Origin: Chionoecetes opilio
Lineage: Eukaryota > Arthropoda > Malacostraca > Decapoda > Majidae
Reading direction: 5' to 3'
DNA length: 64,000 nt
Assembly (NCBI GenBank): GCA_016584305.1
Contig: JACEEZ010011056.1
Coordinates: forward strand, 1-64,000
Numbering within the stretch: position 1 is the stretch's first letter; the number at the start of each line of letters is the position of its first letter. The notes under the pieces are model-generated. The model did no database searches, had not been told where the DNA came from, and saw only the letters and a program-made list of their open reading frames with translations. Positions 12,431 through 62,032 of this stretch are shown here, piece after piece. Made by a program: the position numbers and the translations under genes.

Positions 12431-12674
12431 TTATTCTAACTGTTATACTACTACTACTACTACTATTTTATTATAAGGAAAGATAAATATGATGACATAG
12501 AGGAAGGATAAATCATCAATTTTTTAATGATAAATAGATGATGGAATATATAAACAGATGAATTATTATGAAAGATATTATGTTAATCTTGTTTTTTTCC
12601 TCCTCCTTCTTTCTCTCCTTCTCTTCTTCTCCTCCCCCTATTATTATTTCTCTTCTACCTTTCCTTATTCCACC

Positions 12675-12717
<43 letters not shown>

Positions 12718-13475
12718 ACTACTACTACTACTACTACCACACTACTATACCACACTACTACTACACTACACTCTACTTCTACAACTCCCATACTACTACT
12801 ACCCCCAAATACTACCACCACTACTACTCCCACCCCCACAACTACCACATACTACACTAAAACACCCCCTACTCTACTACTACTACCACTACTACTACAC
12901 TATACTCTATACTACTACTACTACCACCACTACTACTACCACCACCAAAACTACCACCCTACTACACTCAACACGCCACTACTACTACACTACTACCCTA
13001 CTACTACAAATACTACAAATACTACTACTACTACTATACTCCCTTACTACTACCACCACCACAACACCACACTACCACTACTACAAACCACCACTACTAC
13101 CCCAACACTACTACTACTACTACAAATCTACTACTACCACTACTACTTCTACTACTACTACTACTACTACTACCACACTACTACTACTACTACTCCACTA
13201 CTACTCTACTACTACCTACACCCTCCCACACTACTACTACTCACTACCATACCACCTACTCTACTACTACTACCACTACCCTACACTACCTACACTACTA
13301 CTACCTACCCCCACTACACTCCCGGGTATGATTTCAACCAGGGAATCGACTACCACAAGTTATTCGATTCCTTCCGTTACTCTGGTTTTCAGGCGACAAG
13401 CTTTGGTTGTGCTGTAGAGGAGATCAAGAAAATGGTAGGTGAGAGAGAGAGAGAGAAAGAAGAGAGAAGGAGAGG

Positions 13476-16500: not shown

Positions 16501-19500
16501 TCATTTTTACTTTCTTTTTCTCTTTGGATTCTTCATATTCATTTCTATTGTTTTGTACTTCTCCCCAAGGTTGATACCTCCTTTTTTCCCCCAAATTTTC
16601 CATTTTTTTCTCTTTCTTCTTTCTAATTCAAAATTTTTTTGTTAAACCTTCTTTTTTTTCTTTTTTTCTGATAACTATCCTTGAACTAAATATTTTTTCC
16701 TTCGGTGTAATTCAGATGAAATCTCCCATTTTTTCTGGGTACTCCTTGCTGCAGGAATTTTTCCATCTGTCTCCCGAAGAATTTCTTATCCCAAAATTCT
16801 TTTTTCCCTAATTGTATCTTTTCCTTTTTTGTGTTCTTCTCTTTTCCCCTCTTTTTTTCTATCATTTTTTCAAAATTCAATAAGACATGGTCACTCTTGC
16901 TAAGTGGGCACTGATAATTTACTTTACTAAATTTCTTCCAGTTCTTTCATCACTATAGGTCTAGTTTTTGGTTCTTCGCTACCTCTGAATCTTTTTTCTC
17001 TTTTAATCCACTGATTTTGATGTTATTCTTCCAAATCCACATGTACCCCCCTGATCTTCTCCTCCTTCAGTATACCTTTTTCCCCCGCAAACTTCTTTGC
17101 TTAAAACTCCCATCAAAAATTTTGTTCTCACTATTTTCCATCGTATTCTTTAAACTTTGCTTGTGTCTCTTTCATGTCTCCGTACTCTTCTTCCCCCAGG
17201 AATTTGTCTTAGGGGGAATGTATAGGAGTACTAAGTCTCTTTTCTTTTTTTTTCTCCCAAAATCTACCTTCAAAACCTCGGGGCCCTTCCCTTTTCCTTT
17301 CTCCACTTTCCTACTACCACTCCTCCTTGTTAAAAACCCTTTCCCCCCCCCCCTTTTTCTGGTTTCGGGTTTTCCCTCATACATTATTTGCCCTCCCCAA
17401 CGGCACTCCTCGAATCACTCGCTTCGTTTTTACTAAACCCCAAAATTTCTGGTTTTTTGGCTCTCAGGTAACGTTACTTCTGTTAAGTTGACTCTACCCA
17501 TTTATATTTGTGTGTGGGGTGTGTGTTTGTGTTGTGTGTGTTTGGGGGTGTTGTTGTGTGTGGGTGGTGTGTGTGTGTGTGTTATGTGTGTATTGAAAAA
17601 AAATTGTAATATGAAAATGTTATTGGTCTTTTCTCTCTCTCTCTCTCCCCCTTTTCTTCCTCTCTCTCTCCTCATCCACAGGGTTTTTTGTGAGCATAGC
17701 TAGTGGATTGCATCGTCACCCCAGCAGGGGGCGTGGAAGAGGCCGATCAAATGCCTGGCTAACACATACAAGGGGGGTTTTTGGGACTTAACGGGAAAAA
17801 AACTGAGGCGAAGGGAAAAAAACCGCTGGGAATTTGCTGGTGCCCAAAAACAAATATTTAAATTTTAGGGCTGGGGTTTTGCAACTGGACACCATGGGTT
17901 CAAAAACAAAAGAGGAGGGGGGTGTGGGGGTGTTTAATGCATATTTTGTTTTTTATTTTGTTTTTTGGTGTGATTTTCTCTGATTTTTGGGGTGGTTTCT
18001 GTGGTGAGTGGTGGTATAAATTTTTTGTGTGTGTGTGTGGTAGGGGGGGTTTTTTGTGTGTGTGTGTGTGTATGGGGGGGGTTTTTTGTGTGTGTGGGGA
18101 TGGGGGGTTCTTTTTATTGGTGTATGGGGGGGCTTTGTGGGTTTTTGGTATGGGGGGGTTTTTTGTGTGTTGTGTATGGGGGGGTTCTTTGTGTGTGTTG
18201 TGTGTAGGGGGGGTTTTTTTTTGTGTGTGTGGGGGGGGGGGGTTTTGTGTTGTGTTTGGGGTGTGTGTGTGTGTATGGGGGGGTTCTTTTGTGTGTGTGT
18301 TAGGGGGGGTTCTTTTTGTGTGTGTGTGTATGGGGGGTTCTTTGTGTGTGTGTGTAGGGGGGGTTCTTTTGTGGTGTGTGGTGTATGGGGGGTTTTTTTT
18401 TGTGTGTGTGGTGTATGGGGGGGTTTTTTGTGTTGTGTGTGTGTGTATGGGGGGGTTCTTTGTGTGTGTTATGGGGGGTTCTTTGTGGGTGTGTGTGTAG
18501 GGGGGGTTCTTTGTGTGGGTGTGTAGGGGGGGTTCTTTGTGTGTGTGTTTGGGGGGGGTTTTTTGTGTGTGTGTTATGGGGGGGTTCTTTGTGTTGGGTA
18601 GGGGGGTTTTTGTGTGTGTGTGTTGGGGGTTTTTGTGTGGGTGTGTGTATGGGGGGGTTTTTTGTGTTGTGTGGTGATGGGGGGTTTTTTTTGTGTTGGG
18701 TTATGGGGGGTTCTTTGTGTTGTGTGTATGGGGGGGGTTTTTTGTGTGTGTTGTGGTATGGGGGGGTTCTTTGTTGTGTGTGTGTGTATGGGGGGGGGTT
18801 TTTTGTGTGTGGTGGGTGGGGGGGTTCTTTGTGTGTGTGTTATGGGGGTTCTTTGTGTGTGTGTGTGTGTATGGGGGGGTTCTTTGTGTGTGTGTGTATG
18901 GGGGGTTCTTTGTGTGTGTGTGTGTGTATGGGGGGGTTCTTTGTGTGTGTGTGTATGGGGGGGTTCTTTGTGGTGTTTCCCTAGGTGTGTTTTTACAGGG
19001 CCTGAGCTACACTCCTATGGCCCTGGTCTCCACAGCTATATTTAATTTTGCTTACTTAGTGGTTAGTGTTTGGCTAGTGTGTATGGTGTTGTGTGTGTAT
19101 TTACCTAGTTGTGTTTTACAGGGCCTGAGCTACACTCCTAGGGCCCCGTCTCCATATCTACATCTATCCATTTTTCCTTCAACTAGTGCACATTCTTTGC
19201 CGATATCACCCTCCTCATTTAGTCCATGTGTGTGTGTGTTTGTGCATGATTGGGGGTTGGGAAAGAATATATTTGTGATTATCTCTCTCTCTCTCTCTCT
19301 CTCTCTGCATACTTATACCTTCATCAACCTCTCCACTCATACACACTCACACACCCTACCCCTCAACCTTTCATACCCCACCCCCCCCCTCCACCGACCC
19401 TTTCCACACATTTCCTCACCCCCCCCACACCCCAGGTACCAACTGCCCTCCCTCTAAGATCATCAAAGGCTCGCAGCGAGATGGACGACCCTACCAGCAT

Positions 19501-19636
19501 CGCTTACGGGGCCTCGCGTAACAACATTCCAGTCTTCAGCCCGGCCCTGACAGACGGCAGCCTGGGTGACATGATGTACTTCCACGGCATTAAGAGTCCT
19601 GGCCTGGTGGGGGATATTAACGAAGGTTTTGTGTGT

Positions 19637-19728
<92 letters not shown>

Positions 19729-22700
19729 TTACCTACAGTAACCCTCTCGCATTCGACTAATTCGGTCAAGGAGTAGTACGAATAATGAAAGGATCCAAAA
19801 AATGCAGGGATAAGAAAGAAAAAAAAGAAAAAAAGTAGGTGAATATAAAAAATGTCTAAGTCATGCAGATATCAATAAATATAAGATAATCTGTCAAAAA
19901 ATAAATCTACAGTAAAAATACACACTACAGTACTGTACAGGAGTATGTACAGCACTGTCAGTTCCTACTCTGGCAGCGGGAGCCGGCAGCAGTATCATGA
20001 TGCGGAGATTTCCTCCTCCTTTTTGGTGTTGTATGTAGGCTGCGAGGACCCCTTGAGGAGTCCTAAAGATTTCCCCGGTGATATCCTATATGCTATCACA
20101 GGCGTGGTAGCTGACCTGTCTTCTTCAGGAAGGCACAGGTGAGGCGGATGACAGCGTGTTTTTCCTGGAAGGGGAGGCAGGGCGCCAGGCGGAGCAGGTC
20201 GCTCGCCAGCAGGGGGGCAGGGTTTTTTAACGTCATTACTAGTTATTATACATCGTAGTGATTATGGTGAGCTGTTATATACACGCCTCATTATTTAGGT
20301 CAGTGTAGTACCTCGTGTCACCTTAAATAAGGGATATTTAAGGTGTTTGAGGTGGCGGGGTAGCCCGTGAAGGGGAAAAATTCTTGCCGCAGCCACCCCG
20401 TAACACTAATGGAAAAAGTGTCCATGTGACACTACCTTTAAAGGCCGTGTCAAAAGTATTGTTGACTTGTGATTGGTCCCAGAAGTTTTTAGAAACAGTT
20501 TGTCATTGGCTGGTGACTGATGACAATTTGATGACGTCATTACTCGTCCAACCCTCAGGGCCTTCCTACCTGTTAACTACCTAACGAGGGAGGCTTTCTG
20601 GATACGGTAGTGAGGCAGTAGTATCTAGGTGGTTTGGGAGAGCGGGTGGTAGCTAGAGATACGACCTCCGTTGCTGGATCTGGGTCCAAGGCTCAATGGC
20701 CTCAGATCACTCGCCAATACAACATTTGGACACAACAAAGAAACCACAATTACAGTATACAAAGTATATGCTCAGTGATGGATCATAAATGCTCTGCCTG
20801 GCTGCCTGGGCCTCTAACCTCACTGACTCACATCATGACACCCTAAGGAGGAGGAGGAGGAGGTCCGAATAATGTCGAAGTCAGAATAATGAAGGTCCGA
20901 ATACGAGGGTTTACTGTACTTGTATTTACCTAGTTGTGTTTTACAGGGCCTGAGCTACACTTGTGTGGTCCCGTCTCCGTATCTACATTTATCCAGTCTT
21001 TCTTTCAATTGGTGCACATTATGTGTCGATATCACCTCCTTCTAGTCCATTACAAACTTCTACATTTCTATGAGGGAAGCTGTACTTTTTTATGTTGTTC
21101 AGGCATCTCCCTTTTCATAGTTGTTTTGTATGTCCTCTTGTGTAGCGACCTTCTCTTTGTTTCCAAGTCAGTAGTCTCTCATGGTCTGTTTCTTCCATCT
21201 TAGTTATTAGCTTAAAAATTGTTATTAAGTCTCCTCTTTCTCTTCTCTGCTCGAGTGTTGGTAACTTTATTTCTTTCAACCTTTCCTCATAAGAGAGAGA
21301 GTTTTTCTAGCTCTGGTACCATCTTTGTTGCCATTCTCTGTATCCTCAACAACTTTTTCACATGCTTCTTTTTATATGGGAACCATACAATGGCAGCATA
21401 TTCCATTTTTGGTCGGATCATTGTAGTAATTATCTTTCATCATATTTTTGTCTGTAATGAAATAAAGGTAAAGATGGAAGCATACGCTAAGCTGCGCGTG
21501 GTATTCGGTGCTCATCTCCGTGGCATTAGCCCTTAGAGCCTGTGGTGGGTGAGGACTCATTACCCCGGGACACAGGGCTAGTGTGACAGTGGGACACCCA
21601 GGCTACCACAGTTACCTTCCCCAGGTTACCCCAGGTACCCATTTATCAACCTCGAAAGGAAGGAAGAACAGCTGGGTTGGCTGGTCGCCGACTTGCCCAG
21701 GCCCGGATTCGAACCAGGGCCCGCAGATTCGTAGCCCGGCATGCTAGCCACTACACCACGGAGGCGACGTGTAATGAAATGCTACTCTAATATTCTTTAA
21801 CATCCTGTTTATATTTCCAATTTTTTTTTTTTTTTTTTTTTTTTTCTTCTGGTTGTAGGTTATTCTCCATTATCACTCCTAAGTCCTTTTCTTCATGAAC
21901 CTTTGTAATTATTTCATTTCCCATTTTATATGGCCATTTATAAACCTTTTTGCTTTTTCCAATTTCCATCACATGACATTTATTCACATTAAATTCCATT
22001 TCCCATCTTCTGCTCCATTCGTAGATCTTGTTCAGGTAGTCTTTATAGCTTTTTATTTCTCTTAATAGTTTTGCATCCTCCGCAAATAGACTAATATAAC
22101 TTTTTATTTCCTCCGTCATGTCATTGACGTAAATCGTGAACATTATTGGTGGCAGCACTGGTCCTTGTGGCAGCCCACTAAATACCTTTCTCCATTCAGA
22201 CTGTTCATCCTTCACTACTGTTCTCATTTCTCTTCCTCTCAGATAACTTTCCATCCAGGTTTTGATCATCCCTGTGATTCCTCCTATATTTTCCAATTTC
22301 CAAAGTAGTCTCTCATGTGGAACTTTATCAAATGCCTTTTTAAGATCTTGATACACACAGTCTGCCCATCCATCTTTGCTTGTGTTATATCAATTACTCT
22401 TGAGCAAAAGCTTATTATGTTGGTCACACATGATCTCTTTTTGCTAAAACCCTACTGCCGGTCTGTTATTATACCTTCATTTTCTAAGTATTCCGTCCAT
22501 TGCTTCTTTATTATTTTATCACCTATCTTGCATACTGTGCTAGTCCATGACACTGGTCTATAATGTAGTGGTTCATCCTTCTTCCCTTTTTTATATATTG
22601 GCACTCTATCTGCTTCTCTTTCACGCCTTGGCACTTTTACCATTGTTAAGAAAACTTTATTAATATATATTATGGTTAACCCACTGCTTTCTGCACTCTT

Positions 22701-28700: not shown

Positions 28701-31700
28701 CACAGCAAATACATGGCCAATGTGAAGCTGGAATTAGAGCATTTCTCTTTCACAAGTCCACGCTGCATCATTCAGTCAACCATTTACATTACGCTTCGAA
28801 TGCCAACGTGAACCACACACACAGTGTTTGTACAAACCTTGTATCGAGGACGGCACACCCCTTCGATCACTCACTAGTTTCAATAAATTGTCCTCGCTAT
28901 CTTTATCATTTTCACATTAGCCACGAATACGTTCACTGGTTCCTCAAACGTACCCCACCATGGCCTCTTTGTTTCGTAGGCATCAGGGCAATCACGTGCC
29001 AGTGATATATCAATTTTCACAAATAGCACATTTGGATATTTGTACCATTGTGCCACACATAGGGTTTTTTCTCCTATGTCCTGTCTTTGACGTCCACTAT
29101 TAACCACGCCCACGGGCATAGCCTTGCGGTCCCGCCAAACCAAGTCTACCTCGAATGGTTCCGCCCCCATACAGGGCTTCCTCACTTGCACCAACGTTCT
29201 GCCCTCATTACCACAAATAAAGGTTTGATTTTATCTGGTATGTGGGCGCTCGGTCCCTTCGCCCACTCAAAAAATATTTCGGTTTTGAGCGTCGCCTTCA
29301 ATTATCGTTGTTACAAACCTGTGTTGCCGACATGACTAATTGTTTCTCTTCTTCCTCTAACAAACATTAAGCCAATAACATAAAGGCCACAAACCGAATC
29401 GTTCAAGTTTTCATCCGCTTTGTAACCCATGGTACGGATGTTCAAACTCCTCGACACAAAGTACTTAAATTTTGCTCTCTTTTTTCTCCGTTAAGGGCAT
29501 ATAAAGCCTCAAATGCTGCCAAATTTCATTCTTCTTCATCGACCATAAAACACATGCATCCAGTCTCTTCATTAACCCACTTCCCGCCATCCTCGGCCTC
29601 CAACTTGGTCTTATCAATTTCCGACGATGCACTTCTGGCCCGCCCGGCCAATTACAGATGTATCGCCCCAGCGACCGCTTTCCGTTTCTCTATTGTGGGA
29701 AGTCTGCACCCACACCTACATCCCCTTCCACATTTCGTATTCTTAATCACGCTCCAATTTCGGAGGCCACTTCAGTGAACCAGCCATTATTGCAGTTGTG
29801 AACTACGCCTGTACCAATGTTAATATTCTAGGACACAATGCATCACTCACTCTGGGGACCAACTGTGTCATTCGACTCCACGTTGTCTGTCCTTGTCACG
29901 TGATCACCAGTGATGCGTCATGAGCCAGCTGATGATATGGCAGTCTGCCATGGTTTCACGCCGTGGAGGGCGGTACAAACAATACAAACAAGGACTGTTG
30001 TGCTAACACACTCGCTATCTTAACACACTCGCATAATTAAAACACACTGGTTTGCTACGATGTCTGCGTTTCTTCTATTTCGACTTCTATTTGTACACTC
30101 CACTATTTCAGCTTTCATTCTCCATACTCCACTTCTGACTTCACCCTAATTCTGTTCAGTATCCATAGCCTCCACCACCTCTCTACCACTTCTGTCATCC
30201 TTCTCCACATGTTGTATTTATTGCTTATCATCACTTTTTTTTATCGCTTTTTCTTTATTATTTACATATGTGCTCATAGCGCCTGTAGGCATGGTGACCC
30301 AGGGCTTGGATGGTAGGGCTCTGGAGGTCCCTTGAGGGCGGTGATGGCTTGCCCTCACCCGTGGTGGCGCAGGCGATTTTATAGTTACGCCTGTGAATTA
30401 GAAGCTCACGCGCGCCCCTGCCCGTGTCCTTACGCTGCACTTGCAATCCAAGTAGAGGTGATGGGCAGGGCATTTGGGTGTTCTTAGGTCCACTCGACGG
30501 TGCAGAATGGTTTTGGTTTTTAGTCGGGGATGAACTCGGAGTCCACCGAGAACGCAGTCGGGAGACGCTAACCACTCCGCTACCGCCTCCCCAAGAAGAC
30601 TGGTCATCTTCTACTAATTAAGTGTCTGTAGAACACCGCGTCGGGATCTTTATTTAATAAATCAATCTTTAGTTCAGCCTTCTTGGTATTAGGTGTGTGT
30701 GTGTGCGTGTGTGTGGGGGGGGGGGGGGGGGGTGTTTAGTGTAAAAAAAGAAGTAAAAAAAAAATGCGCTGGTTTGCTGTGTTGCTAGACGCTATTGTCA
30801 CCTCCGTAGGTGTAGTGGTTTAGCGTGCCGAGCTACGAATCGGCGGGCCCTGGTGCGAATCCGGGCCAGGGCGTCGGCGGCAGCCCACCCAGCTGTTCAT
30901 CCTTCCTTTCTGGGGATGGTGGATAAATGGGTAACTGGGGAAGGTAACTGTCGGTGGCCCGGATGCCACACTAGCCCTGTGTCCCGGGAGTGCCACAGGC
31001 TCAAACGGCTAATTCTTCCTCCTTATATCATCAGGATTGCAGCGTCTCAACATCGACAAGAAACTATCAATACACGGAATGGTAATTGAGGAGGGAGCTT
31101 GGTTAAACATCACATCTGTAATTTAATTCCTTATGGAAGTACAGGGGGAGGTGTGTAGCTAATGTCCAGTTTTTAGGTAGGAGGACATTTTTGGGGGGAT
31201 GACTTTACTGTTATTATTGTAAGATTCGAATTTTTTATATATTTTTTTGCTATACGTATATTTTTTATATATATTTACTGTTATTATTTATAGTTTTGTA
31301 TATTTTTGTGTGGTCTCTCTCTCTATCTCTCTCTCAGCACAACACCCATCTCTCTCTTCTTCTCTCAGCACAACACCCATCTCTCTCTATCTTCCTCTCA
31401 GCGCAACACCCATCTCCCTCTCCTTCCTCTCAGCGCAACACCCATCTCTCTCTCCTCCTATCACACAACACCCATCTCTCTCTTCTTCCTCTCGCGCAAC
31501 ACCCATCTCTCTCCTCTCTTCCTCTCAGCGCAACACCCATCCCCCTCCCCCTTCCCACTCACCCTCCCCTCTCCCTCCAGCGCAAGGGGGCCAACTTCTC
31601 GGTTTTCCCTGAAACGGCCAGCGGTGGGACGGCAGTGATAGGGCCCCCGGGCCGGACGAGGCCGTGTCCGGGGCAAGTTTAAATTGGAGCCACCCAGTCA

Positions 31701-32159
31701 AGGTATAAAAAAATAATAATAATAAAAAATAATAATAATAATAATAATTTTTGTTATTTTACCTATTAATGTAAACCAGGGAAGGAAAACTGGGAAACCC
31801 GGGATGTCACACTAGCCCTGTGTCCCGGGGACCAAGGCCAAGGGCTAATCCCCGGAGATGAGCACGAGCCAGCGTCACATAGCGTATCCCCCATCTTTTA
31901 CCTTTACCCATTAAAATTACTTCTACTACTGTCAATAACACTTCTCGCCTGCATAATGTCGCCAGGAAAAATTATACAGGGATTATTAGGAATGTTAGCA
32001 CACTACAGACTTGTATGTGCACGAAGACGGGTACATAATATAAACTACTGTGCATAACTCTTCAGTGGTACATAAAAGTCTGTAGTGATGCTAACACTCC
32101 TAATATATGGCGCCTGGCAACTATAGTGTTGTTGACGGTACCTACTACTACTTCTACTT

Positions 32160-32229
<70 letters not shown>

Positions 32230-32389
32230 CACCACCACTACCACCCTTGACCACCCCATTCATTCGTTACAGATTTATGGGGAAGCATCGTTCTTCTTCC
32301 CTCTACTGGTTGGCGAGACATTTGCTAGACACTACCACCAGCGCAACAAAGAACAAGGAAAACAAGAACATCAAGATAGTCCAGAGTAG
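9447..32389 (+). CDS. DHPS: Deoxyhypusine synthase gene (seven visible exons, one missing)
   Basis: Deoxyhypusine synthase transfers the aminobutyl group of spermidine, with NAD, to one lysine of eIF5A. This is the first step of hypusine formation in the cytoplasm. Seven coding segments occur in the correct order on the plus strand and cover the family sequence from the N-terminus to the C-terminus: [15 protein letters not shown], the TAGGVEE-type segment, [18 protein letters not shown], the active-site WGK segment and the [16 protein letters not shown]-terminus. Visible coding sequence is about 994 nt; adding the missing 105 nt or so gives about 366 residues, close to the 369 of human DHPS. 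The missing part, expected between 19625 and 31581, would encode the GGG...KHH region, including the histidine that corresponds to human His288. Most exons carry one to four single-base indels that read as consensus errors. All recognised retroelements with coding remnants in the introns lie antisense to the gene. Confidence 0.9.
9533..9562. repeat. (GT)n microsatellite
   Basis: A GT run at the 3' (left) end of the antisense LINE that follows. Confidence 0.85.
9563..10904 (-). mobile_element. LINE copy A (CR1/Jockey-type), 5'-truncated
   Basis: Antisense to DHPS, with its 3' end at the left (GTTTACCTAGTTG next to a GT run). The minus strand at 10460-10705 encodes reverse-transcriptase block [19 protein letters not shown] and then SGVP. 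The [14 protein letters not shown] catalytic block lies around 10400-10440 in another frame. Copies B (14752) and C (20919) share the same 3' end and the same protein blocks. It is truncated at 10904, where a GT run and a SINE begin, and no complete frame remains. Confidence 0.85.
10460..10705 (-). pseudogene. LINE A reverse-transcriptase fragment
   Basis: An 81-codon open piece of the RT finger/palm region ([37 protein letters not shown]). It is broken on both sides by frameshifts, and the FADD motif is outside it. Nonfunctional remnant. Confidence 0.85.
10921..11179 (-). mobile_element. tRNA-derived SINE, family 1, copy A
   Basis: The tRNA-like head is at the right: the minus strand reads GTCAGTTTGATAACG, then TAGGCGGTTCGAATCCTC (B-box). 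The body contains CCCCCTTGAGCAAGGGGATG and GAGCTCCAAGCTCGCACTG, with a (CA)n tail at the left. The same body occurs at 36985-37200, 39738-39812 and 39866-40136. Confidence 0.8.
11180..11270. repeat. (GT)n microsatellite
   Basis: Long, slightly interrupted GT run. Confidence 0.9.
11271..11814. other. Intronic, no gene; short tandem CACTCAC motifs
   Basis: DHPS intron. GTTTACTTAGTTGTAATA after the GT run resembles the shared LINE 3' end. Around 11370-11460 the motif CACTCACACAGTCA recurs. No coding feature was recognised. Confidence 0.45.
11815..12076 (+). repeat. LINE-tail-like repeat (ACATAAGAACATAAG...)
   Basis: Starts AACATAAGAAATTAAGGAAG, then GCTACAAGAGGCCGCAAG and CCTACACGTGGTAGTTCC, and ends in a TTCCAGCTTGAATCC region. 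The same sequence forms both arms of the palindrome at 3485-4385. I recall it as a widespread decapod repeat, probably the 3' part of a LINE. Confidence 0.65.
12231..12300 (-). repeat. LINE-tail-like repeat, inverted fragment
   Basis: CGGCCTCTTGTAGCTTCC followed by TTATGTTCTTCTTATGTTC is the reverse complement of the start of 11815-12076. The two face each other across about 150 bp. Confidence 0.65.
12356..12430. repeat. (GT)n microsatellite
   Basis: Pure GT run. Confidence 0.95.
12672..13318 (+). repeat. (CTA)n/(TAC)n triplet-rich array
   Basis: About 650 bp of CTA triplets with CCA interruptions, on the plus strand, ending directly at the DHPS exon at 13325. It stays open for a long way in several frames only because of its triplet nature. 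Confidence 0.9.
13325..13434 (+). CDS. DHPS: DHPS exon, YDFNQGIDY region
   Basis: Encodes [17 protein letters not shown], then GFQATSFG and AVEEIKKM, which matches the conserved N-terminal part of DHPS (human RGYDFNRGVNY...GFQATNFGRAVQQVN). The donor ATG|GTAGGT at 13435 is good. The acceptor reads CTCCCGG instead of an AG, presumably an error at CCCAG. It sits directly after a 650-bp CTA-rich repeat and before a (GA)n tract. Confidence 0.88.
13439..13565 (+). repeat. (GA)n tract with terminal G run
   Basis: Begins at the donor of the exon ending 13434 (GTAGGTGAGAGAG) and ends in about 18 G. Confidence 0.9.
13674..14230 (+). repeat. (CCTT)n polypyrimidine tract
   Basis: About 550 bp of almost pure pyrimidine (CCTT, CCCTTT variants) leading into the acceptor of the DHPS exon at 14238. 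Confidence 0.9.
14238..14369 (+). CDS. DHPS: DHPS exon, TIFLGYT region
   Basis: The acceptor is TCTCCGCCTCAG (ends 14237). The frame opens [10 protein letters not shown]; further on another frame gives NCTIFLGYT and then a VREТI-like stretch, matching human [23 protein letters not shown]. At least two one-base errors are present (the A-run near 14310 and TAACATGGGT). The donor is taken as GT at 14370. The first half of the exon is the variable DHPS linker. Confidence 0.72.
14435..14520 (-). mobile_element. LINE 3'-end fragment
   Basis: ATTCATCTAGTTAAATTT ... TTTTACGGGGCCAAGCA ... CCCCGTCTCCATAT matches the start of LINE C near 20925-20990. Only the tail is present. Confidence 0.5.
14541..14740 (-). 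mobile_element. tRNA-derived SINE, family 3
   Basis: On the minus strand from about 14740 the DNA reads AGGGGTACTCTGTGGTTAAG (A-box-like), then GGTTCACAAAACCC, then a GGTTCG B-box core near 14680. Left of this is a body ending near the GGTTTTTACCTGCTC motif. The B-box is damaged by indels. Confidence 0.6.
14752..17500 (-). mobile_element. LINE copy B (CR1/Jockey-type)
   Basis: Antisense to DHPS, with its 3' end at ATTTACCTAGTTGTATTTACC. Protein fragments in the expected order from right to left are: a pre-RT region (15812-16237, with [19 protein letters not shown]), RT with FADDAKLL (15450-15746) and a C-terminal piece (14968-15171, TYEERLSRL...LEKRRERGD). Frames are heavily broken. The right limit is approximate. 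Confidence 0.85.
15450..15746 (-). pseudogene. LINE B reverse-transcriptase fragment
   Basis: Contains [13 protein letters not shown], then [15 protein letters not shown] (the FADD catalytic motif), then [11 protein letters not shown], which is typical of the RT palm and thumb. The product would be incomplete because neighbouring blocks lie in other frames. Confidence 0.85.
17505..17672. repeat. (GT)n then (CT)n before a DHPS exon
   Basis: A GT-rich run (17505-17590), then a CT tract (17630-17672) that serves as the polypyrimidine tract of the exon at 17682. Confidence 0.8.
17682..17921 (+). CDS. DHPS: DHPS exon, TAGGVEE-type region
   Basis: The acceptor CCTCATCCACAG ends at 17681. Across three frames the exon encodes a segment resembling human DHPS from YLVQHNMVDVLVTTAGG to [19 protein letters not shown], then [13 protein letters not shown], then GKKLRR...NRWGNLLVP-like, then LDTM. 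At least five indels lie in the G and A runs, so no single frame is open. The donor is placed at GT 17922, where the (GT)n/G-rich minisatellite begins. Recognition rests on the collinear order of several short motifs and on correct placement between the neighbouring exons. Confidence 0.75.
17922..18985 (+). repeat. G-rich minisatellite (GGGGGGTTCTTT + GT run)
   Basis: About 35 tandem units of 22-30 bp: TATGGGGGGGTTCTTT followed by (GT)3-8. Each unit has a run of six or more G, so the plus strand (the DHPS mRNA-like strand) has dense G-quadruplex potential. Long open frames here (for example GGSLCVCV repeats) are artefacts of the repeat. Confidence 0.9.
18986..19230 (-). mobile_element. LINE 3'-end fragments, two partial copies
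   Basis: TTTACAGGGCCTGAGCTACA occurs at about 18990 and again at about 19117, each followed by a GGCCC...GTCTCCA motif, as at the 3' end of LINE C. The second is preceded by ATTTACCTAGTTGTG. Confidence 0.65.
19275..19306 (+). repeat. (CT)n microsatellite
   Basis: CT run upstream of the DHPS exon at 19436. Confidence 0.85.
19436..19625 (+). CDS. DHPS: DHPS exon, [11 protein letters not shown] region
   Basis: The acceptor CACACCCCAG ends at 19435. The main frame reads [11 protein letters not shown], then [18 protein letters not shown], then [11 protein letters not shown], a near-identical match to the most conserved block of DHPS (human [30 protein letters not shown]). The tryptophan of the YWA motif is lost to a one-base deletion in GCTTACGGGGCC. 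The first 40 bases (PSKII-like) are in another frame. The exon ends GATATTAACGAAG at 19625 in phase 1, so the missing next exon should complete a Glu/Asp codon. A (GT)n tract follows at once. Confidence 0.95.
19627..19733 (+). repeat. (GT)n microsatellite at DHPS donor
   Basis: A GT run starting at the donor of the exon ending 19625. It is a likely site of assembly collapse. Confidence 0.9.
19736..20916. mobile_element. Tigger/pogo-like element, second family
   Basis: The left end CAGTAACCCTCTCGCATTCG and right end CGAATACGAGGGTTTACTG are inverted repeats, with TA on both sides (19734-19735 and 20917-20918). Length is 1.18 kb. No transposase frame was seen. It sits against the 3' end of LINE C; ATTTACCTA occurs on both sides. 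Confidence 0.8.
21464..21769 (-). mobile_element. tRNA-derived SINE, family 2, copy A, with TSD
   Basis: Flanked by identical 11-bp direct repeats TGTAATGAAAT at 21453-21463 and 21770-21780, a textbook target-site duplication. The head at the right reads on the minus strand GTCGCCTCCGTGGTGTAGTG (A-box region) and CCCTGGTTCGAATCCG (B-box). The body includes CCTGTGTCCCGGGGTAATG and the tail is TTTACCTTT. Related copies are at 30797 and 31769. Confidence 0.92.
21787..22356 (-). pseudogene. LINE C reverse-transcriptase fragment
   Basis: A 190-codon frame, the longest RT piece in the window: [91 protein letters not shown]. The catalytic FADD motif reads FAED, an Asp-to-Glu change that probably destroys activity. 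The frame ends in a lysine run made by a poly-T tract (about 21823-21845). The N-terminal part of the protein lies in another frame at 22452-22751. Confidence 0.88.
22452..22751 (-). pseudogene. LINE C pre-RT fragment
   Basis: Encodes [20 protein letters not shown] and [20 protein letters not shown], the N-terminal motifs of LINE reverse transcriptase. It continues into 21787-22356 after a frameshift. Confidence 0.8.
23433..23906. mobile_element. Tigger/pogo-like element, copy 2 (same family as 8385)
   Basis: Starts CAGGGAGGTCCGTTATACC and ends GGGACCTCCCTG before TA (23907-23908). The body matches 8385-9259 (TGATACGAGATGTGTAAATT, GGTGACCTGAAGGGTAATTA). At 474 bp it lacks the extra tandem units and the roughly 300-bp insert of copy 1. 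Inserted in LINE C. Confidence 0.8.
24282..24498 (-). repeat. Copia 3' LTR
   Basis: Starts TGTTAAATTTCCTAG. It shares GTCACGTGATCA, ATGAGCCAGCTGATGATATG, GTCTGCCATGG, ACAAACAATACAAACAAG and GTGCTAACACACTCGCTAT with 29818-30033. The right boundary is set where the two copies diverge. Confidence 0.85.
24600..24957 (-). pseudogene. Copia RNase H C-terminal fragment
   Basis: Two overlapping minus frames carry the end of Copia pol: an EALYTYKL piece, then DNKRLRL in the other frame, then a [14 protein letters not shown] motif, which corresponds to the conserved LADCLTK end of Copia RNase H. It is split by frameshifts. Confidence 0.8.
24969..25640 (-). mobile_element. Jockey-type LINE 3' end nested in Copia
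   Basis: A poly-T run at 24976-25002 is the poly-A tail. The minus strand encodes the C-terminus of a Jockey-type [15 protein letters not shown] (25167-25418), [17 protein letters not shown], then a FKRRVTRHL end at 25127-25160. It separates Copia RNase H into two parts, so it inserted after the Copia element. It belongs to a different family from LINEs A-C. Confidence 0.85.
25640..26903 (-). pseudogene. Copia pol remnant (RT to RNase H)
   Basis: Read on the minus strand. [20 protein letters not shown] followed by RGF and NSP motifs is the Copia RT start. MDIQAAY corresponds to the MDVKTAFL block. YGLCDAA and KYVGFNVVT mark the RT core and connection, LVGN the end of RT, and [11 protein letters not shown] with a LAAETWALL-type motif the RNase H. 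Motifs lie in alternating frames, with at least eight breaks. No functional product is possible. Confidence 0.82.
26940..29802 (-). other. Copia 5' half (gag/protease/integrase expected), unresolved
   Basis: Lies between recognised RT and the 5' LTR, so by position it should hold gag, protease and integrase. The longest minus frame (28880-29194, 104 codons) has no motif I can assign. Base composition is even, without homopolymer inflation. The absence of a clear zinc knuckle or integrase motif suggests strong decay. Confidence 0.5.
29818..30033 (-). repeat. Copia 5' LTR
   Basis: Starts TGTTAATATTCTAGG and ends AACACACTCGCA. About 15-20% divergent by eye from the other LTR, which implies an old insertion or poor consensus. 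Confidence 0.85.
30238..30598 (-). mobile_element. tRNA-derived SINE, family 4
   Basis: On the minus strand from 30598 the DNA reads GGGGAGGCGGTAGCGGAGTG, GTTAGCGTCTCCCGACTGCG and CTCCGAGTTCATCCCCGAC, a tRNA-Ser-like head with A and B boxes. A body of about 270 bp ends at the left in an A-rich tail (T-rich on the plus strand at 30234-30265). Confidence 0.75.
30599..30796. other. Intronic, no gene; GT and G runs
   Basis: DHPS intron with a GT run (30690-30713) followed by about 20 G. Nothing coding. Confidence 0.5.
30797..31040 (+). mobile_element. tRNA-derived SINE, family 2, copy B
   Basis: The head GTCACCTCCGTAGGTGTAG, then GCTACGAATCGGCGGGCCC, then a GTGCGAATCCGGGCC B-box with one change from GGTTCGAATCC. 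The body CACACTAGCCCTGTGTCCCG matches 21464-21769. The right end is approximate. Confidence 0.82.
31317..31556 (+). repeat. Minisatellite of acceptor-like units before DHPS exon
   Basis: Seven units of about 30-35 bp: pyrimidine tract, TTCCTCTCAG, CGCAACACCCATC. Each contains CTCTCAG|CGCAA (or a one-base variant). The true exon 25 bp further on starts CCTCCAG|CGCAAGG, so the array repeats the acceptor motif. Confidence 0.85.
31581..31702 (+). CDS. DHPS: DHPS exon with active-site lysine
   Basis: The acceptor CTCTCCCTCCAG ends at 31580. The frame opens RKGANFSVF, matching RNGADYAVY. Then DGSD-, PDEAVS- and GKF-type motifs appear in other frames and the exon ends PVK before the donor GTATAA at 31703. 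The exon is 122 nt where 126 would be expected, so about four bases are missing, including the T of the TGG codon in the WGK motif. In human DHPS the lysine of WGK is Lys329, the enzyme-intermediate residue. Confidence 0.85.
31769..31912 (+). mobile_element. SINE family 2, 3' fragment
   Basis: GTCACACTAGCCCTGTGTCC, then GGGCTAATCCCCGGAGATGA, then a CATCTTTTACCTTTACC tail; matches the tail half of 21464-21769 in reverse complement. It lies in the last DHPS intron. Confidence 0.75.
32147..32240 (+). repeat. (CTA)n-(CCA)n array left of DHPS last exon
   Basis: About 25 CTA triplets, then about 8 CCA triplets, ending some 30 bp before the terminal exon. Complementary to the (TAG)n array at 32387-32481. 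Confidence 0.95.
32273..32389 (+). CDS. DHPS: DHPS terminal exon
   Basis: The acceptor CATTCGTTACAG ends at 32272. The exon encodes [18 protein letters not shown] followed by a 20-residue polar tail, and the stop codon TAG is at 32387-32389. It matches the DHPS C-terminus (human [21 protein letters not shown]) without frameshift. It is bracketed by (TAC)n on the left and (TAG)n on the right, and the stop codon is the first unit of the right-hand array. Confidence 0.95.
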   Translation: MYGEASFFFPLLVGETFARHYHQRNKEQGKQEHQDSPE

Positions 32390-32392
32390 TGA

Positions 32393-32479
<87 letters not shown>

Positions 32480-32490
32480 CAGTAGTAGTA
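32387..32490 (+). repeat. (TAG)n array starting in the DHPS stop codon
   Basis: The stop codon TAG is followed in frame by TGA and then about 28 TAG triplets, so the 3'UTR begins with a run of consecutive in-frame stop codons. It is the reverse complement of the CTA array on the other side of the exon. Confidence 0.95.
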
Positions 32491-32853
32491 GTGTTTATTC
32501 AGCTTAAACTGTCCCCTAATATTCTACCATTATATATATCTTTTATTTCTTCTGTAATTCCCATGTTAATGTAATGATTGAAATGCCTTAAGTTTTTTTG
32601 TGTGATTTTCTCAATTTTTTATTTTTTTTTAATTTTCTCGGATGTTAAAATGGTGAAATAAGCTTTTTTTGTGTGGAGTTTGATTTATTTTGGGAATTAA
32701 AGCAGTGAAGTTAGTAATGATTTTTTTCTTCTATTTTTTGCCATGGTAAGATAAGAGTTCTGTATTTTTCTTATTCATAAAGTCATATTTTGTTTATTTT
32801 ATTGAGAAATTGTATATTTTTCACATAATTCTGTAATTCTAAATGGTATAAAC
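32491..32853 (+). other. Probable DHPS 3'UTR / downstream DNA
   Basis: T-rich, with an ATTAAA hexamer near 32694 that could act as a polyadenylation signal; no AATAAA was seen nearby. Nothing else. Confidence 0.35.
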
Positions 32854-33600
32854 CAGTGCTCTTCAACCTTTTTTGATGTCGTGCACCCTAGCAGTGATTT
32901 GGTAAGAGCTGTCGTCCACCACAACTATTTTCTCTTTCAAATCTCACGGCTCTGACATTTTAAATCTAACTATGTAGCTACGTATATCATTCTACAAAAT
33001 ATATAGGTAGGAAAGGGCAGCTTCACTCATTTTAAATTTACATTTTACATATTCTTCTGTATAATAACACAGCAAATGCATTTTTCTTCATGAAACTAAA
33101 GTAAAATTGCACCTAATATGAGTTATATTTGGTAATCCAGAAAACAGCCTTTTCCTTCAAGAAACAAAAAACAGTGGCTTGGCTGCTGTTGCAATTTGTC
33201 TGCTATCAGCTTAAATCGAGGTATCAGTCAATTTTCAAGTGCAACCCACATATCCAAATTCAGAATGGCATTTCTTTTCTATGCCTTGATTTCTAAGTTT
33301 GAGAAAATTTGCTGACACAGACATGATGTTGGCGTCTGCACAGACATGTGTGTTGTCTTCTCAGCTAGCTTACTCCTTAAAGTCCTGACCGTCAAGCAGG
33401 ACAACCCAGCAATGCAATGTATAGAATGGCCAAATGTTTTGAAAGCTGCTTTTTAAGAATAATCCACTGGAAGCTCCAATAGGGCATCAGATTGATCAGT
33501 TCCATCATGTGGAAGGTCTGAGGTGTTTGGAAATAGAAGTCAAGGTTGCAAGCGACATTTCTCTTGCTCCCCCGCAGGAAAACGCATTAGTTAGTGTCAT
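32854..33600 (-). mobile_element. hAT element 3' fragment
   Basis: Begins with the hAT-type end CAGTGCTCTTCAACC at 32854. The minus strand at about 33150-33480 encodes, in two frames, MWVALEN and IPRFKLIADKLQQQPSH, which resembles the extreme C-terminus of ZBED-like hAT transposases. The other end was not located. Confidence 0.6.
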
Positions 33601-33719
33601 GCTTTGCAAACATGCTTGGACCGGGAACAATATATAGGAAAAATTTGGCAAATTTTATTTAGGAGAAATAGAATTGCTACATGGAAAATACAATGAAATA
33701 ATCACAAAAATCACATTTT

Positions 33720-33905
33720 AATCATTGATTATTATGAAGAAAAATATGATTATGATTTGATTATGATTAAAGCTGCAGCTTCATATTTGATTATGATTTG
33801 ATTTTGATTATACCTGTTGCTTAACTTTTGATTATGATTTGATTATGATTATGTAATCACACCCTTGGATTATGATTTTTTTTGATTAATAATCATAATC
33901 ATGTC
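33720..33905 (+). repeat. GATTATGATTT minisatellite
   Basis: About 12 imperfect copies of an ATTATGATTTG unit. Confidence 0.85.
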
Positions 33906-33940
33906 CATGTCTGATGTCCCACACTAGAAGTAAAACCACA

Positions 33941-34080
33941 CACACACACTATAGATATTCTTTCTTTCTTATTTTAAACACACACACACACCCCACATTA
34001 TAATACTATTTCTTTTCTTTTTTTTACACACTCACAAAAACACACACACACACACACCCCCACACACACACACCCCACTT
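33941..34080 (+). repeat. (CA)n-rich tract
   Basis: Interrupted CA runs with T-rich spacers. Confidence 0.85.
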
Positions 34081-34155
34081 CTTACATAATTTTAGCTTCA
34101 AAAAAATAGCTGAAATCCGCCCCCACAGTTTAAAACCAGCCACGCCAACTCCACC

Positions 34156-36791
34156 CAGGGCCGGATTTAGACGTGTGGAGGCCCTGGGCAGCCTCTGTGT
34201 GGAGGCCCTGGGCAGCCTCTGTGTGGAGGCCCTGGGCAGCCTCTGTGTGGAGGCCCTCCTGCATTAAAAAATTTTACAAAGTATAGGGTTGCCTAGTGAA
34301 GCGGGGCTGAGCAGTGGGAGCTTCGGATTTTTTTTGAGATTTTACCCTTTTTAAGAGCTTTTTGAAGCAATAAGCAAAGCTAAATTGAGAAGTATATAAG
34401 CTTTAGCAATGTATACAATAGAGAAGGATTGATTATCATTATCAATTTATAAGCAAAGTAAGCAAAAGCTACTATTTACAACACTAGTCTGAAAATCTAT
34501 GATGCATATCTACATTTTCCATGTCTGCTAAGAAAAATCAATTATACAGTACCAGTACCTTTAATTACAGAACTGGAAGTGTCACTTTACGAGATCTAAC
34601 CCTTGCAAAGTTTTTTTATCAACTCAGGGGAAGTCAGTTCTCTGAGGATGTCATATTCGATGCTCATCAGGCTAGGTGGCTAACCCCTGTCATGAACATT
34701 GTAGCACAAAGTCTGTTTTGATAGATTTCATTTTACTGAAAGAAACGTTCTCCAGAACAATTTGTGACCATGAGCACCAAGTACACCCACAGGATTATTT
34801 CAAATTTGGAAATGTATCAACAACATTCTTGTACATGAACAGCTTGTAAAGGAAATGTGCCCTCCCTTTCTCTACATCTTCGTCTTTGAGAAATTGAGTA
34901 AAGAAGGCTGCAAACTGCACTAGTTCAACTCCAAGTGTTTGATCCAGATCATTCTTGTACTCAGCAACCAATTTCGCGGGCAGCTGCTTCAATTTCATCA
35001 CAATTCAATGATTCCATTTTATCCAAGAATCCAAAAAGTGAACAGATTTCTTCTAGGCCTTTAAAACCGTTGTCCAGTGAACTCAGGAACTGATCAATTG
35101 CTGGAAATTCTGTATGCGAAATGCTTCTGACGTGAGAGGGATGCCTTTTCAGATCGTCCATAATCCAATAGATTGAGTCGTACATTACCCTTGCGCTTAC
35201 GTGTCTGTAAATATTCCTCGGTTTTCCCGAAATTCCCCCCCCTTCTCATAAACATGGAAGCGATCTCGTTTTTCACGTACAAAACATTCCAAGGACTTCA
35301 TCATTGTGACTGCTGTGTTCAAAATCAAGTTTAGGATCTTGCAATGCGTGGCTTGTGGGCATCAACTCTACCAAGAATGTCATGCCTAAAAACAGCATAA
35401 ATGGCTGTCTCTAGCTTGCCCATCCTTTCAAGGAGACCACTGGCTTCATAATGAGTTTTGCTCATCTCATTTCATCTCTAGCTATTTTAGCAAGTGCTTT
35501 AGGGATTGGTAAAATATCCTTGGACTGGCTTTCACTGCAAAATGCTCGACAGGACCATCTTGTTGTAGAAATCCCCCTTTTGGTACAGACACTGGGCCAG
35601 ATTCTACATTTTTAGTAAATCGCTAAGAATTGCATAACGACGTGTAGAAGCTGTGAAGAACACATAAATGGCCTCTAGAAAAAAAAAAAAAAGAGATAGC
35701 TGCTTGACAACATTCAGCTGCAGCTTTTCCAACCAGGTTTAATGAGTGACCTGCACAAGGTATCCAAACTGCATGATGATTTTTAGCTGCAACTTTGGCT
35801 TGCAGACCATTGTATCTCCCACTCATATTGTTGCATCACGACACTTTGAATGTCAATTTAGTCTGTTTGAAATCTCATCAAACTTTCAAAACATTTTTTT
35901 AGCCTTGTGTTTTGGTTTGGTAAGAACTTCACAAACTTCTTACAGGTGTTATCATGCTCCATGTATCTGAAGATCAGTGTCAGTGATCAACATGACCTTC
36001 ATCAGGTGTTGAATCCAAAGAAATTGAGTAATATTTTGACAGCTTTATAAGTCAATTATTTCCTTGAGTACTTCATTGCCTATTAGTCTGGTGATTTTTT
36101 CACAGATGGTTGAAGATAAATAGTTTGTATGGCCACTGCCTCGACGGCATGATTATATATGTGTGCCTGAGGAAATCATCATACTCGGCCAAAAGCTCTA
36201 ACAATCCTAAATAATTTCCATTATGAGGAGATCCAATTTTTATCATTCCCCGAAGAGCTAGGCCTCTTTTACAAAAACATTTCAGCACATTAATCAGTTT
36301 TCAAAAGACTACACCAATACGCTCAACTTGATCCACTTGTGTTGGTTTCCTTTGAGTCTACACCTCCAACTCTCATTGCACGACTTGTTGCTGACAAAAC
36401 TGTTGAATGTGGTCCTTTGATTGTTTATGGACAGCAAGCCCATTGGCGTGTTTCCAGTCACAGAAACCCATCAGATGTGAACTGAGATCTCGAAACACCC
36501 ATTAGCTTGCAATATAAGCAGTAGACTCTCCCATTTTTTGGAGATAGACATAGCCAATAACGCTGTTAACTTCCCCATTTCGATTCCTTCGCTCAAAACA
36601 TACCTGGTGTGCATTTGCGACTGACATTTTATCCCTTTTTGGATTGCTGTTTTAGCTTCCAAAAATTTTTGCATCACTGTATATGGTGGCCCCGGGCCCC
36701 CATTTTGGCAGTTTGCCCCATTTTGTGGGGGGCCCCTGATTGTGGAGGCCCCTGGGCGCTGCCCATTTTGCCCACTCCTAAATCCAGCCTG
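34156..36791 (-). mobile_element. Complete hAT DNA transposon (8-bp TSD)
   Basis: The left end CAGGGCCGGATTTAG and right end CTAAATCCAGCCTG are terminal inverted repeats. The perfect 8-bp duplication ACTCCACC flanks it at 34148-34155 and 36792-36799, the hAT signature. Inside is a minus-strand transposase of the DUF4371/ZMYM1-like group, broken by frameshifts. Near the left end (34172-34258) a 24-bp GTGTGGAGGCCCTGGGCAG-type unit is repeated three and a half times. Confidence 0.95.
34560..36480 (-). pseudogene. hAT transposase (ZMYM1/DUF4371-like), frameshifted
   Basis: Transposase of the hAT group that is often annotated as zinc finger MYM-type protein 1-like. Pieces on the minus strand in order are: KRGLALRG and GSPHNGNYLGLLELLAEYDD (36100-36288), a DSTPDEGHVD-type core block (35950-36030), MSGRYNGLQAKVAAKNHHAV with IPCAGHSLNLVGKAAAECCQ (35623-35826), YKNDLDQTLGVELVQFAAFF (34795-35001), and a RSRK end near 34570. 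The C-terminal dimerisation region reads through several frames. An A-run at 35683-35695 causes one break. About 640 codons, close to the family's usual length; not translatable as it stands. Confidence 0.88.
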
Positions 36792-49578: not shown

Positions 49579-50227
49579 GGTAATGAAGGATCTGCCTGAG
49601 AGGGTTCCCAGCCGTGCGTTGTGTTGTGTGTCCGCCTTTCATCCTGTCATCACGGGTGCTTCAGCGGCGGCGGGGTGACTAAATGAGGGGCTACACCAAG
49701 GTAATTGCTTGCTAACGGTTTGGCTGGCGTGATAATTTGGTGTATCGTTGTCTTGCCACACGCGCCTCGGCGTTACAATTCGCTGGTCAAATGTCTTAAT
49801 CCGTCCGCGTGTCTGCACACCTGCACACCGCGTGTCTGCTTCAGGATGACGCACTCCCCTTGAAGGCACGGCAAGCAGACGCCCGTCCGTCACCCCCTGA
49901 ACAAGACAGGGCGCTTCACACCTGGCCGGCCCCGCCCCGCCCCGCCCCGCCGAGCCGCCACTAAGCCCCCCGGCCCCACCCTGGCCACTTAGCGCGGCGG
50001 CCCAGCCTGCAGCGGCAGCGCAGGGGTGGCAGCTCCGCCCCGCGCCTGATAAGCATGTTACCTTCTTTACGAGAACAAATTACAGAGGGAGTGATGTGTG
50101 TGGCCCCCCCATGCACGACCTGATCAGCACTTGCCGGGAGTTACGGCTGCTTGGGGCGAGAAGTGGTCCGTGGTCATGCATGCACTGGGGCGGGGCGGGG
50201 AGGGCGCGTGCGGGAGTGTGTCTTGTG
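49579..50227. other. GC-rich, CpG-dense stretch
   Basis: 49915-50045 is strongly GC-rich, with four CCGCCCCG-type boxes in a row near 49928-49950 and several CpGs. It may be a CpG-rich promoter region for something in this area, but no gene start can be tied to it. Confidence 0.4.
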
Positions 50228-51120
50228 TGAATTAGAGAGAACTGCAACTCCGAAATGCCAGTGGTCGCTGGCAGTTTTAACTCACAATTTGGTGAAAAGT
50301 TGGTCAACTTGAAAGAAAAATATGGGCTTATTCCACTGCACTTAAAACACACAAGTATAATATTAAGAACGATTTTCTTCTATATGTATATTGTATAGAA
50401 GCCTGATTCTGTAAAACATTGTATATAACCAAATAACCAAGTAGGTTATAGTTGAGGAGGCGAGGTAAATGCTACTCTATGATATTATATAGTCAATAAC
50501 GAATGTTTAGAAGTTATCTATACCTAGGCAGTCATATTTTCCTGTTATTATTGTGTATCAATCAGATAGAAAGCCTGGAAGTGCAATGAGTCGACGCGTG
50601 AAGTCGTAATGTTTTGATTCAATCTCCCCGCCACAATCTCCCCGCCCACCACTCCCCGCCGCGGCACGTCGCCTCCACTATTATAACCTACATTGTCGCA
50701 GCAACAAGCCGATTTCGGCATTCTTTATTCTTCGTTTTTCCAAGGCATTGCTTATTGTATTTTGACAAGCGTTTGCCAGACGCAGCAGTACTGTCTTAGA
50801 AAACAGTGTGAACATCGCCCAAATTTTACATGCCACAATATACATGTAAAAAATCTATTAAGCTTTGCTACTCGAGGCGAGTAATTTGCATTAAATTGCT
50901 ATTATAGAACGTTCCATCGTAATGCATGTCATCCATATAATTAGTAGAACAACAGAAGAACTATATTTTTTGGTATTCAGATGCTGTGCATCAACGTTTA
51001 TCGCGAAATTAATTTATGAAAAATATTAGTCGCGGAGCCAAAACACAGTAGACCAACCTTTGAGTTAAAACTGCCAGCGACCACTGGCATTTCTCGAGTT
51101 TCAGATCATTGGAATTAGAG
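50228..51120. mobile_element. MITE-like element with long inverted ends
   Basis: The left arm (50231-50310) and right arm (51047-51120) are inverted copies sharing ATGCCAGTGGTCGCTGGCAG, TTTTAACTCA and a TTGGT motif. Each arm itself contains the small hairpin TGCCAG/CTGGCA. The 740-bp interior is AT-rich without a long frame. No family was recognised and no target duplication resolved. Confidence 0.65.
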
Positions 51121-61990: not shown

Positions 61991-62032
61991 TACATACATT
62001 GTCTCATCATCATGATTTCAGGCAAAGTTGAG

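What the first reader, a model, noticed from the sequence alone, without database searches (positions are those of the whole stretch)
32147..32490. Last DHPS exon sits between complementary (CTA)n and (TAG)n arrays
The terminal exon (32273-32389) has about 25 CTA triplets on its left and about 28 TAG triplets on its right, on the same strand. These are reverse complements, so DNA or pre-mRNA could form a long stem that encloses the whole exon and its acceptor. Such a stem could alter splicing, recruit double-stranded RNA editing or stimulate deletion of the exon, and repeat-length polymorphism would tune it. That the arrays can pair is seen in the sequence; any effect is inference.
Basis: partly seen in the sequence, partly recalled or inferred. 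Interest (0 to 1): 0.78.

Follow-up and report, generated by a model that had tools for sequence, protein, structure and literature searches.

The report
Complementary microsatellites around DHPS last exon
A crab-like decapod's gene for deoxyhypusine synthase has a CTA repeat just before its last coding stretch and a matching TAG repeat that starts at the stop codon; the two could pair in the unspliced RNA and differ in length between two copies of the gene, but this genome is so rich in such repeats that coincidence is the likeliest explanation.

Summary
A CTA array (32142-32219; 26 CTA/CTT triplets, 20 in a pure run) ends 53 nt before the last coding stretch (117 nt with stop) of deoxyhypusine synthase, and a TAG array (32387-32491; 35 triplets) begins at the stop codon. 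In a fold of the last intron plus terminal exon about 76 of 78 left-arm bases pair with the right arm. A second assembled copy (contig C5848) has identical coding sequence there and both arrays at other lengths, 34 and 24 triplets.

The right arm lies in the terminal exon, so ordinary exon skipping is not open to it. The modelled stem does not bury the acceptor: unpaired 0.55 with it, 0.41-0.55 with the left arm scrambled. (ACT)n is very abundant in the 1.94 Gb genome: 347,773 overlapping (CTA)10 matches; 2 of 61 clusters among the first 100 listed array starts mix orientations. Best reading: coincidence of microsatellites, helped by a preference for AG-free orientation before acceptors. Any effect on last-intron splicing is untested. 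More unusual, in passing: a minisatellite of repeated 3' splice sites before exon 7.

The parts
31705..32272 (+). last intron of DHPS (568 bp; donor AAG|GTATAA, acceptor TTACAG|ATT)
   Evidence: exon 7 ends at 31704, exon 8 starts at 32273; 599 bp in copy B
31927..32140 (.). MITE-like hairpin element abutting the left array, with CTT/CTA triplets also on its far side (insertion into the array inferred by eye)
   Evidence: DNA MFE of 31915-32160 -45.8, z -8.1; present in copy B
32142..32219 (+). left arm: (CTA)3 CTT CTA CTT (CTA)20, 26 triplets, no AG on the sense strand
   Evidence: 34 triplets in copy B
32220..32237 (+). (CCA)6 run behind the left arm; (CCA)3 in copy B
32246..32252 (+). candidate branch site CTTGACC (A at 32250, 22 nt before the last intron base); by eye, not mapped
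   Evidence: sequence
32271..32272 (+). 3' splice site AG, first AG after 144 AG-free bases (159 in copy B)
32273..32389 (+). last coding stretch of DHPS, 38 residues and TAG stop
   Evidence: identical in copy B
32387..32491 (+). right arm: TAG(stop) TGA (TAG)29 CAG (TAG)3, 35 triplets, 31 in-frame stops in a row; part of the terminal exon
   Evidence: 24 triplets with 7 leading stops in copy B
32696..32701 (+). ATTAAA, nearest candidate poly(A) signal; no AATAAA in 32390-34000

Best explanation
Two ordinary, length-variable (ACT/AGT)n microsatellites of an SSR-rich decapod genome lie in opposite orientation on either side of the last coding stretch of DHPS. The left one is in the last intron, upstream of the likely branch site; the right one starts at the stop codon and is part of the 3' UTR. 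Opposite orientation is partly expected: before an acceptor the AG-free CTA orientation is tolerated, whereas TAG would put an AG every three bases before the true acceptor; behind the stop codon TAG does no harm. The arms can form a stem in pre-mRNA until the intron is removed, but the pairing arose by coincidence and is most likely near-neutral. Shown: the sequences, pairing potential, difference between two copies, genome-wide abundance, the AG-free zone. Inferred: the tolerance filter and the neutrality.
For: (CTA)10 matches number 177,692 + 170,081 (overlapping), about 55 times the same pattern read backwards; 14,862 array starts in one of three phases, so very roughly 45,000 arrays and about 256 chance opposite pairs within 500 bp even without clustering. 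2 of 61 clusters among the first 100 listed starts mix orientations. Arm lengths do not go together: 26/35 in the window, 34/24 in copy B. Acceptor accessibility is unchanged by the stem. Left arms hold 0 AG, right arms 34 and 22; 4 of 6 acceptors measured in the window follow an AG-free stretch of >=144 nt against 27 of 3315 AG intervals. (ACT)n and (AGG)n are the SSRs named as exceptions to the lower density in Eriocheir than in shrimp (PMC7878876, section 7).
Against: Only one other place in the window equals the duplex energy; 1 of 8 DHPS exons has it, and no (ACT)n opposite pair occurs in the 140 kb sample. The stem is long and is kept in both copies. The branch-site stretch is less open with both arms in the short fold. 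The orientation argument rests on one gene, and E6 and E7 (34 and 50 nt AG-free) do not follow it. The exon-cluster estimate uses a capped list.
Confidence: 0.72

Rival explanations
1. Functional stem: (CUA)n and (UAG)n pair co-transcriptionally, hold branch site, acceptor and coding stretch in a loop and slow or speed removal of the last intron; array length tunes it. Retention would end translation right after the donor (GTA TAA) and lose the last 38 residues.
For: Stable in both copies: MFE -178.0 and -140.6, 0 of 100 shuffles as low in each; 75.6 of 78 and 63.9 of 102 left-arm bases paired with the right arm; branch stretch 0.38 open against 0.75 without the right arm in the short fold. 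Complementary repeats are proposed to act in splicing (Lian and Garner 2005, as cited in PMC10027321, passages).
Against: Acceptor accessibility unchanged; branch effect nearly vanishes in the long fold; no length matching between arms; no RNA data.
Confidence: 0.14
2. The (UAG)n array acts as a 3' UTR binding site for UAG-binding proteins (Musashi, Unkempt; hnRNP A type by recall); the left array is incidental.
For: Musashi-1/-2 and Unkempt bind a UAG core, and binding rises with the number of UAG motifs (PMC12136788, passages); the array stays in the mature mRNA.
Against: No binding data, no conservation test beyond two copies; the array is 24 or 35 triplets long and interrupted differently.
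Confidence: 0.08
3. ADAR substrate: the pre-mRNA duplex is edited; UAG is a preferred ADAR triplet.
For: Long duplex predicted; UAG preference of metazoan ADARs is stated in PMC4817773 (passages).
Against: The left arm leaves with the intron, so editing would need to precede splicing; recoding of the stop is blocked by 31 (window) or 7 (copy B) successive in-frame stops. No RNA data.
Confidence: 0.04
4. Assembly artefact: one array is false, or the locus is a decayed pseudogene.
For: Alignment of the window copy to Eriocheir DHPS needs 21 frameshifts over 317 residues in 8 exons (none in E2 and E8), with stops penalised more than frameshifts.
Against: C5848 holds the same last intron, both arrays, the identical last coding stretch and an uninterrupted exon 7, so an intact version of these exons exists.
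Confidence: 0.02

Closest known systems
Complementary DNA sequence repeats flanking alternatively spliced exons (Lian and Garner 2005; not read, seen as cited in PMC10027321 passages)
   Same: Complementary simple repeats on either side of coding sequence that can pair in pre-mRNA.
   Different: Here one arm is intronic and the other exonic (3' UTR of the terminal exon); alternative splicing not shown.
Long AG exclusion zones upstream of exons (Gooding et al. 2006, PMC1431707, passages)
   Same: 144 nt (window) and 159 nt (copy B) without AG before the acceptor.
   Different: The zone is a microsatellite plus a near-consensus branch site 22 nt from the intron end, so a distant branch point is not required.
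SSR expansion in decapod genes (PMC7878876, section 7 and passages)
   Same: Microsatellites in introns and UTRs that differ in length between related copies; (ACT)n notable in Eriocheir.
   Different: That work, in what I saw, does not discuss orientation or complementarity.
Inverted-repeat-driven exon circularisation (recalled)
   Same: Inverted complementary arms around an exon.
   Different: Needs a downstream 5' splice site, which a terminal exon lacks.

Membership tests
Deoxyhypusine synthase gene | Homology of the exons to DHPS (PF01916 in the listed hits) | tested here: met
Deoxyhypusine synthase gene | Intact reading frame | tested here: inconclusive
   window: 21 frameshifts in 317 residues, none in E2 and E8; exons 7 and 8 clean in copy B; E1-E3 not found on C5848
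Complementary repeats flanking an alternative exon (Lian and Garner type) | Complementary simple repeats on both sides | tested here: met
Complementary repeats flanking an alternative exon (Lian and Garner type) | Both repeats intronic | tested here: not met
   the right array begins at the stop codon and lies in the terminal exon
Complementary repeats flanking an alternative exon (Lian and Garner type) | Exon alternatively spliced | not testable with these tools
   no RNA reads of the organism
Inverted-repeat circular RNA exon | Exon flanked by introns on both sides | tested here: not met
   terminal exon with stop codon; no downstream DHPS exon found
AG-exclusion-zone exon | Extended AG-free stretch before the acceptor | tested here: met
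   144 and 159 nt
AG-exclusion-zone exon | Distant branch point | not tested
   only a near candidate noted by eye at 32246-32252
ADAR-edited duplex | Long duplex | tested here: met
   predicted only
ADAR-edited duplex | A-to-I mismatches in RNA | not testable with these tools
   no RNA reads

The most novel reading that the evidence does not exclude
Splice-site constraint makes exon-flanking microsatellites complementary by default. Upstream of acceptors AG-free orientations (CTA, CT, TCCT) survive while AG- or GT-rich orientations accumulate downstream, so SSR-saturated decapod genomes would hold many exons framed by complementary arrays whose length polymorphism tunes splicing, above all of last introns. 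DHPS exon 8 would be one instance, with a stem energy differing by about 37 kcal/mol between two copies of the gene.
Probability: 0.1. Interest if true: 0.55.

Novelty: new member of a known kind. Interest (0 to 1): 0.27.

Why it matters
If only a coincidence, it shows how closely microsatellites can crowd the splice sites of a housekeeping gene: 7 of the 8 DHPS exons have a repeat array against at least one splice site (by eye). If the orientation idea holds, strand bias of SSRs at exon edges predicts a countable class of exons with polymorphic stems in SSR-rich genomes.

Tried and rejected
Assembly artefact and pseudogene: rejected for the last exons because copy B (C5848) has both arrays, the identical last coding stretch and a clean exon 7. 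Stem burying the acceptor: not borne out in silico. Exon skipping and circularisation: rejected on gene structure. Length-matched arms: not seen in the two copies. Stop recoding by editing: unlikely because of the run of stops. Haplotype or recent duplicate: not settled. Of the 3' flank 32493-33400, among 40 scored of 1147 candidates only C8611 and C5848 match before base 346 (98% alike). C5848:37509-42509 and 49937-54648 align in parallel to window 16151-21128 and 29484-33897; the stretch between was not fetched. C5848:22000-24000 and 33500-36500 gave no match to the window, C5848:30000-32000 (958 N) none, C5848:74500-76500 only 75-80% matches of about 420 nt to unrelated window places; E1-E3 were not found on C5848. 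Copy number of the MITE-like element was never obtained (search unanswered nine times). Ten paper searches listed no report of complementary arrays at a decapod exon; they were broad and only top rows were seen, so this is weak.

Full report
What is there. The window is eukaryotic. Eight stretches encode deoxyhypusine synthase (DHPS). The best named homologue is that of the mitten crab Eriocheir sinensis, then Macrobrachium and Homarus (best 120 of 3822 listed), so the source is a decapod, probably a crab; no tool names it. The genome held has 1.94 Gb in 20,818 contigs and the window is part of contig C8611.

The last exon. 32273-32389 gives IYGEASFFFPLLVGETFARHYHQRNKEQGKQEHQDSPE and a TAG stop. 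Decapod DHPS proteins end in IYGEASFVFPLLVGETFARHHH and the like, and the 38 residues match solved DHPS chains, best E 0.001. The preceding exon ends at 31704 before GTATAA, so the last intron has 568 bp. The left array fills 32142-32219, the right one 32387-32491; the stop codon is the right array's first triplet and 31 in-frame stops follow one another. No AATAAA occurs in 32390-34000; ATTAAA is at 32696 and 33766. The right array is therefore in the terminal exon, not beyond it.

Can the arms pair? In a 381-nt RNA fold the MFE is -178 kcal/mol, 0 of 100 shuffles as low; with DNA parameters -87, 0 of 100. In the whole last intron plus terminal exon (1016 nt) 75.6 of 78 left-arm bases are expected to pair with the right arm. 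Alone the arms give 0 and -24.1, the duplex -132.9. Short CUA and UAG repeats were unstructured in melting experiments, with a very low transition for UAG, and the same paper cites hairpins of various stability for 17-repeat transcripts (PMC9144543, passages).

Does pairing hide the splice site? Mean unpaired probability of the acceptor region is 0.53 with both arms, 0.53 without the left and 0.53 without the right arm; in the long fold 0.55 against 0.55, 0.42 and 0.41 for three scrambled left arms. The branch stretch is 0.38 with both arms, 0.46 without the left and 0.75 without the right arm in the short fold, but 0.42 against 0.45-0.47 in the long one. So the stem holds the acceptor in a loop without burying it. 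These are equilibrium models without proteins or transcription kinetics.

A second copy. Eriocheir DHPS finds 8 places on two contigs of the own genome, three on C8611 (the window) and five on C5848. On C5848 the last coding stretch is identical over 117 nt, exon 7 reads without interruption, the MITE-like element is there, and so are both arrays at other lengths: left 34 triplets (14 mixed CTA/CTT, then 20 CTA), right 24 triplets (TAG TGA (TAG)5 TTG CAG (TAG)15). Its stem has MFE -140.6, z -10.1. The 3' flank differs at 15 of 1096 aligned bases plus four gaps. Among 40 scored of 1147 candidates, only these two contigs match the first 345 bases of that flank; beyond it lies a dispersed repeat. 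I take the two as haplotypes or a very recent duplicate. Parallel alignment was seen for C5848:37509-42509 and 49937-54648 and fails for 33500-36500. In either case the arrays are real and vary. The window's frameshifts (21 over 317 aligned residues, none in exons 2 and 8) are best read as sequence errors of this contig; array lengths in such an assembly are approximate.

Is it special? Locally, yes: of 3128 test positions, 5 reach its flank-to-flank duplex energy, 3 at the locus itself and 2 (two strands) at 62031; 1 of 8 DHPS exons has such flanks. By genome measures it is not exceptional. (CTA)10 occurs at 177,692 + 170,081 overlapping positions, about 55 times the pattern read backwards; array starts in one phase number 7,631 + 7,231. 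If the three phases are alike there are roughly 45,000 arrays, and about 256 chance pairs of opposite orientation within 500 bp without clustering. The first 100 listed starts form 61 clusters, 2 of mixed orientation within 800 bp. In the sample fetched (19 stretches, 139,978 bases, 10,002 of them N) 6 opposite-orientation pairs lie within 500 bp at 4 places, all (AG)n, none (ACT)n. Four inverted-arm clusters (arms >=40, gap <=600) are in the window, ours second by score. PMC7878876 (section 7) names (AGG)n and (ACT)n as the exceptions to a lower SSR density in Eriocheir than in shrimp.

Why opposite orientation? From array to acceptor there is no AG in either copy, while the right arms hold 34 and 22. 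AG-free stretches before acceptors in the window are 578 (E3), 192 (E4), 168 (E5), 34 (E6), 50 (E7) and 144 (E8) nt; 27 of 3315 AG intervals reach 144. E2 has no AG at its expected boundary in this copy and, like E1, is not in that count. That the first AG downstream of the branch point is used, and that long AG-free zones mark some exons, is from PMC1431707 (passages). I infer that arrays before acceptors are kept in AG-free orientation while the array behind the stop is free, which makes complementarity likelier than one in two. This rests on one gene, and E6 and E7 do not fit.

What it most likely does. Most likely nothing that selection sees: a transient stem until the last intron leaves, then a bare (UAG)n in the 3' UTR. 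If it acts, the step open to it is last-intron removal or 3'-end choice, not exon skipping; retention would end translation just inside the intron (GTA TAA) and lose the last 38 residues. UAG-binding proteins (PMC12136788, passages) or ADAR (PMC4817773, PMC8809894, passages) are possible but unsupported here.

Other repeats of the gene. A MITE-like hairpin (31927-32140) abuts the left array, with CTT/CTA triplets on its far side too, which suggests insertion into the array. Before exon 7 a minisatellite repeats the exon's own 3' splice site: by exact nine-base matches copy B has 14 acceptor-like sites upstream of the real one, 11 of 14 in frame with it, 8 of 14 spacings being 33 nt; the window has 5, 2 of 5 in frame. 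One unit in copy B resembles a degenerate piece of exon 7 (by eye). A 30-base unit of it occurs 5 times in the genome search, all in this gene on C5848. In my view this is more unusual than the given finding.

Noticed in passing
window 31316-31580; C5848:51754-52339 (L033): Minisatellite of 31-33 bp units before DHPS exon 7, each unit a copy of the exon's own 3' splice site (pyrimidine tract, CTCTCAG, CGCAAC). Copy B has 14 such acceptor-like sites (11 in frame with the real one), the window 5 (2 in frame); an exact 30-base unit occurs 5 times in the genome search, all on C5848.
   Followed up: partly
window 31927-32140: MITE-like inverted-repeat element (DNA MFE z -8.1 with flanks) that seems inserted into the CTA array; genome copy number not obtained.
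   Followed up: partly
window 9447-32389: DHPS exons carry 21 frameshifts over 317 aligned residues, while exons 7 and 8 are clean on C5848: the contig is error-rich in parts.
   Followed up: yes
window 12684-13322: About 620 bp of (ACT)n directly before DHPS exon 2, with no AG from 12575 to 13339, including the expected acceptor.
   Followed up: partly
C5848:41000-41130 (L028); window 19620-19726: The donor of DHPS exon 5 is the first GT of a long (GT)n array in copy B.
   Followed up: no
window 32838-33400: A dispersed repeat begins about 350 bp behind the TAG array; 66 matches listed from 40 scored of 1147 candidates.
   Followed up: no
window 52818-58257: A 5.4 kb satellite of a 30-bp unit, about 182 copies.
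   Followed up: no
window 61811-62238: Another inverted pair of simple-repeat arms (GGGTGAT-like and CACCC-like, 88% over 49 nt, gap 330) around an inner inverted sequence.
   Followed up: partly
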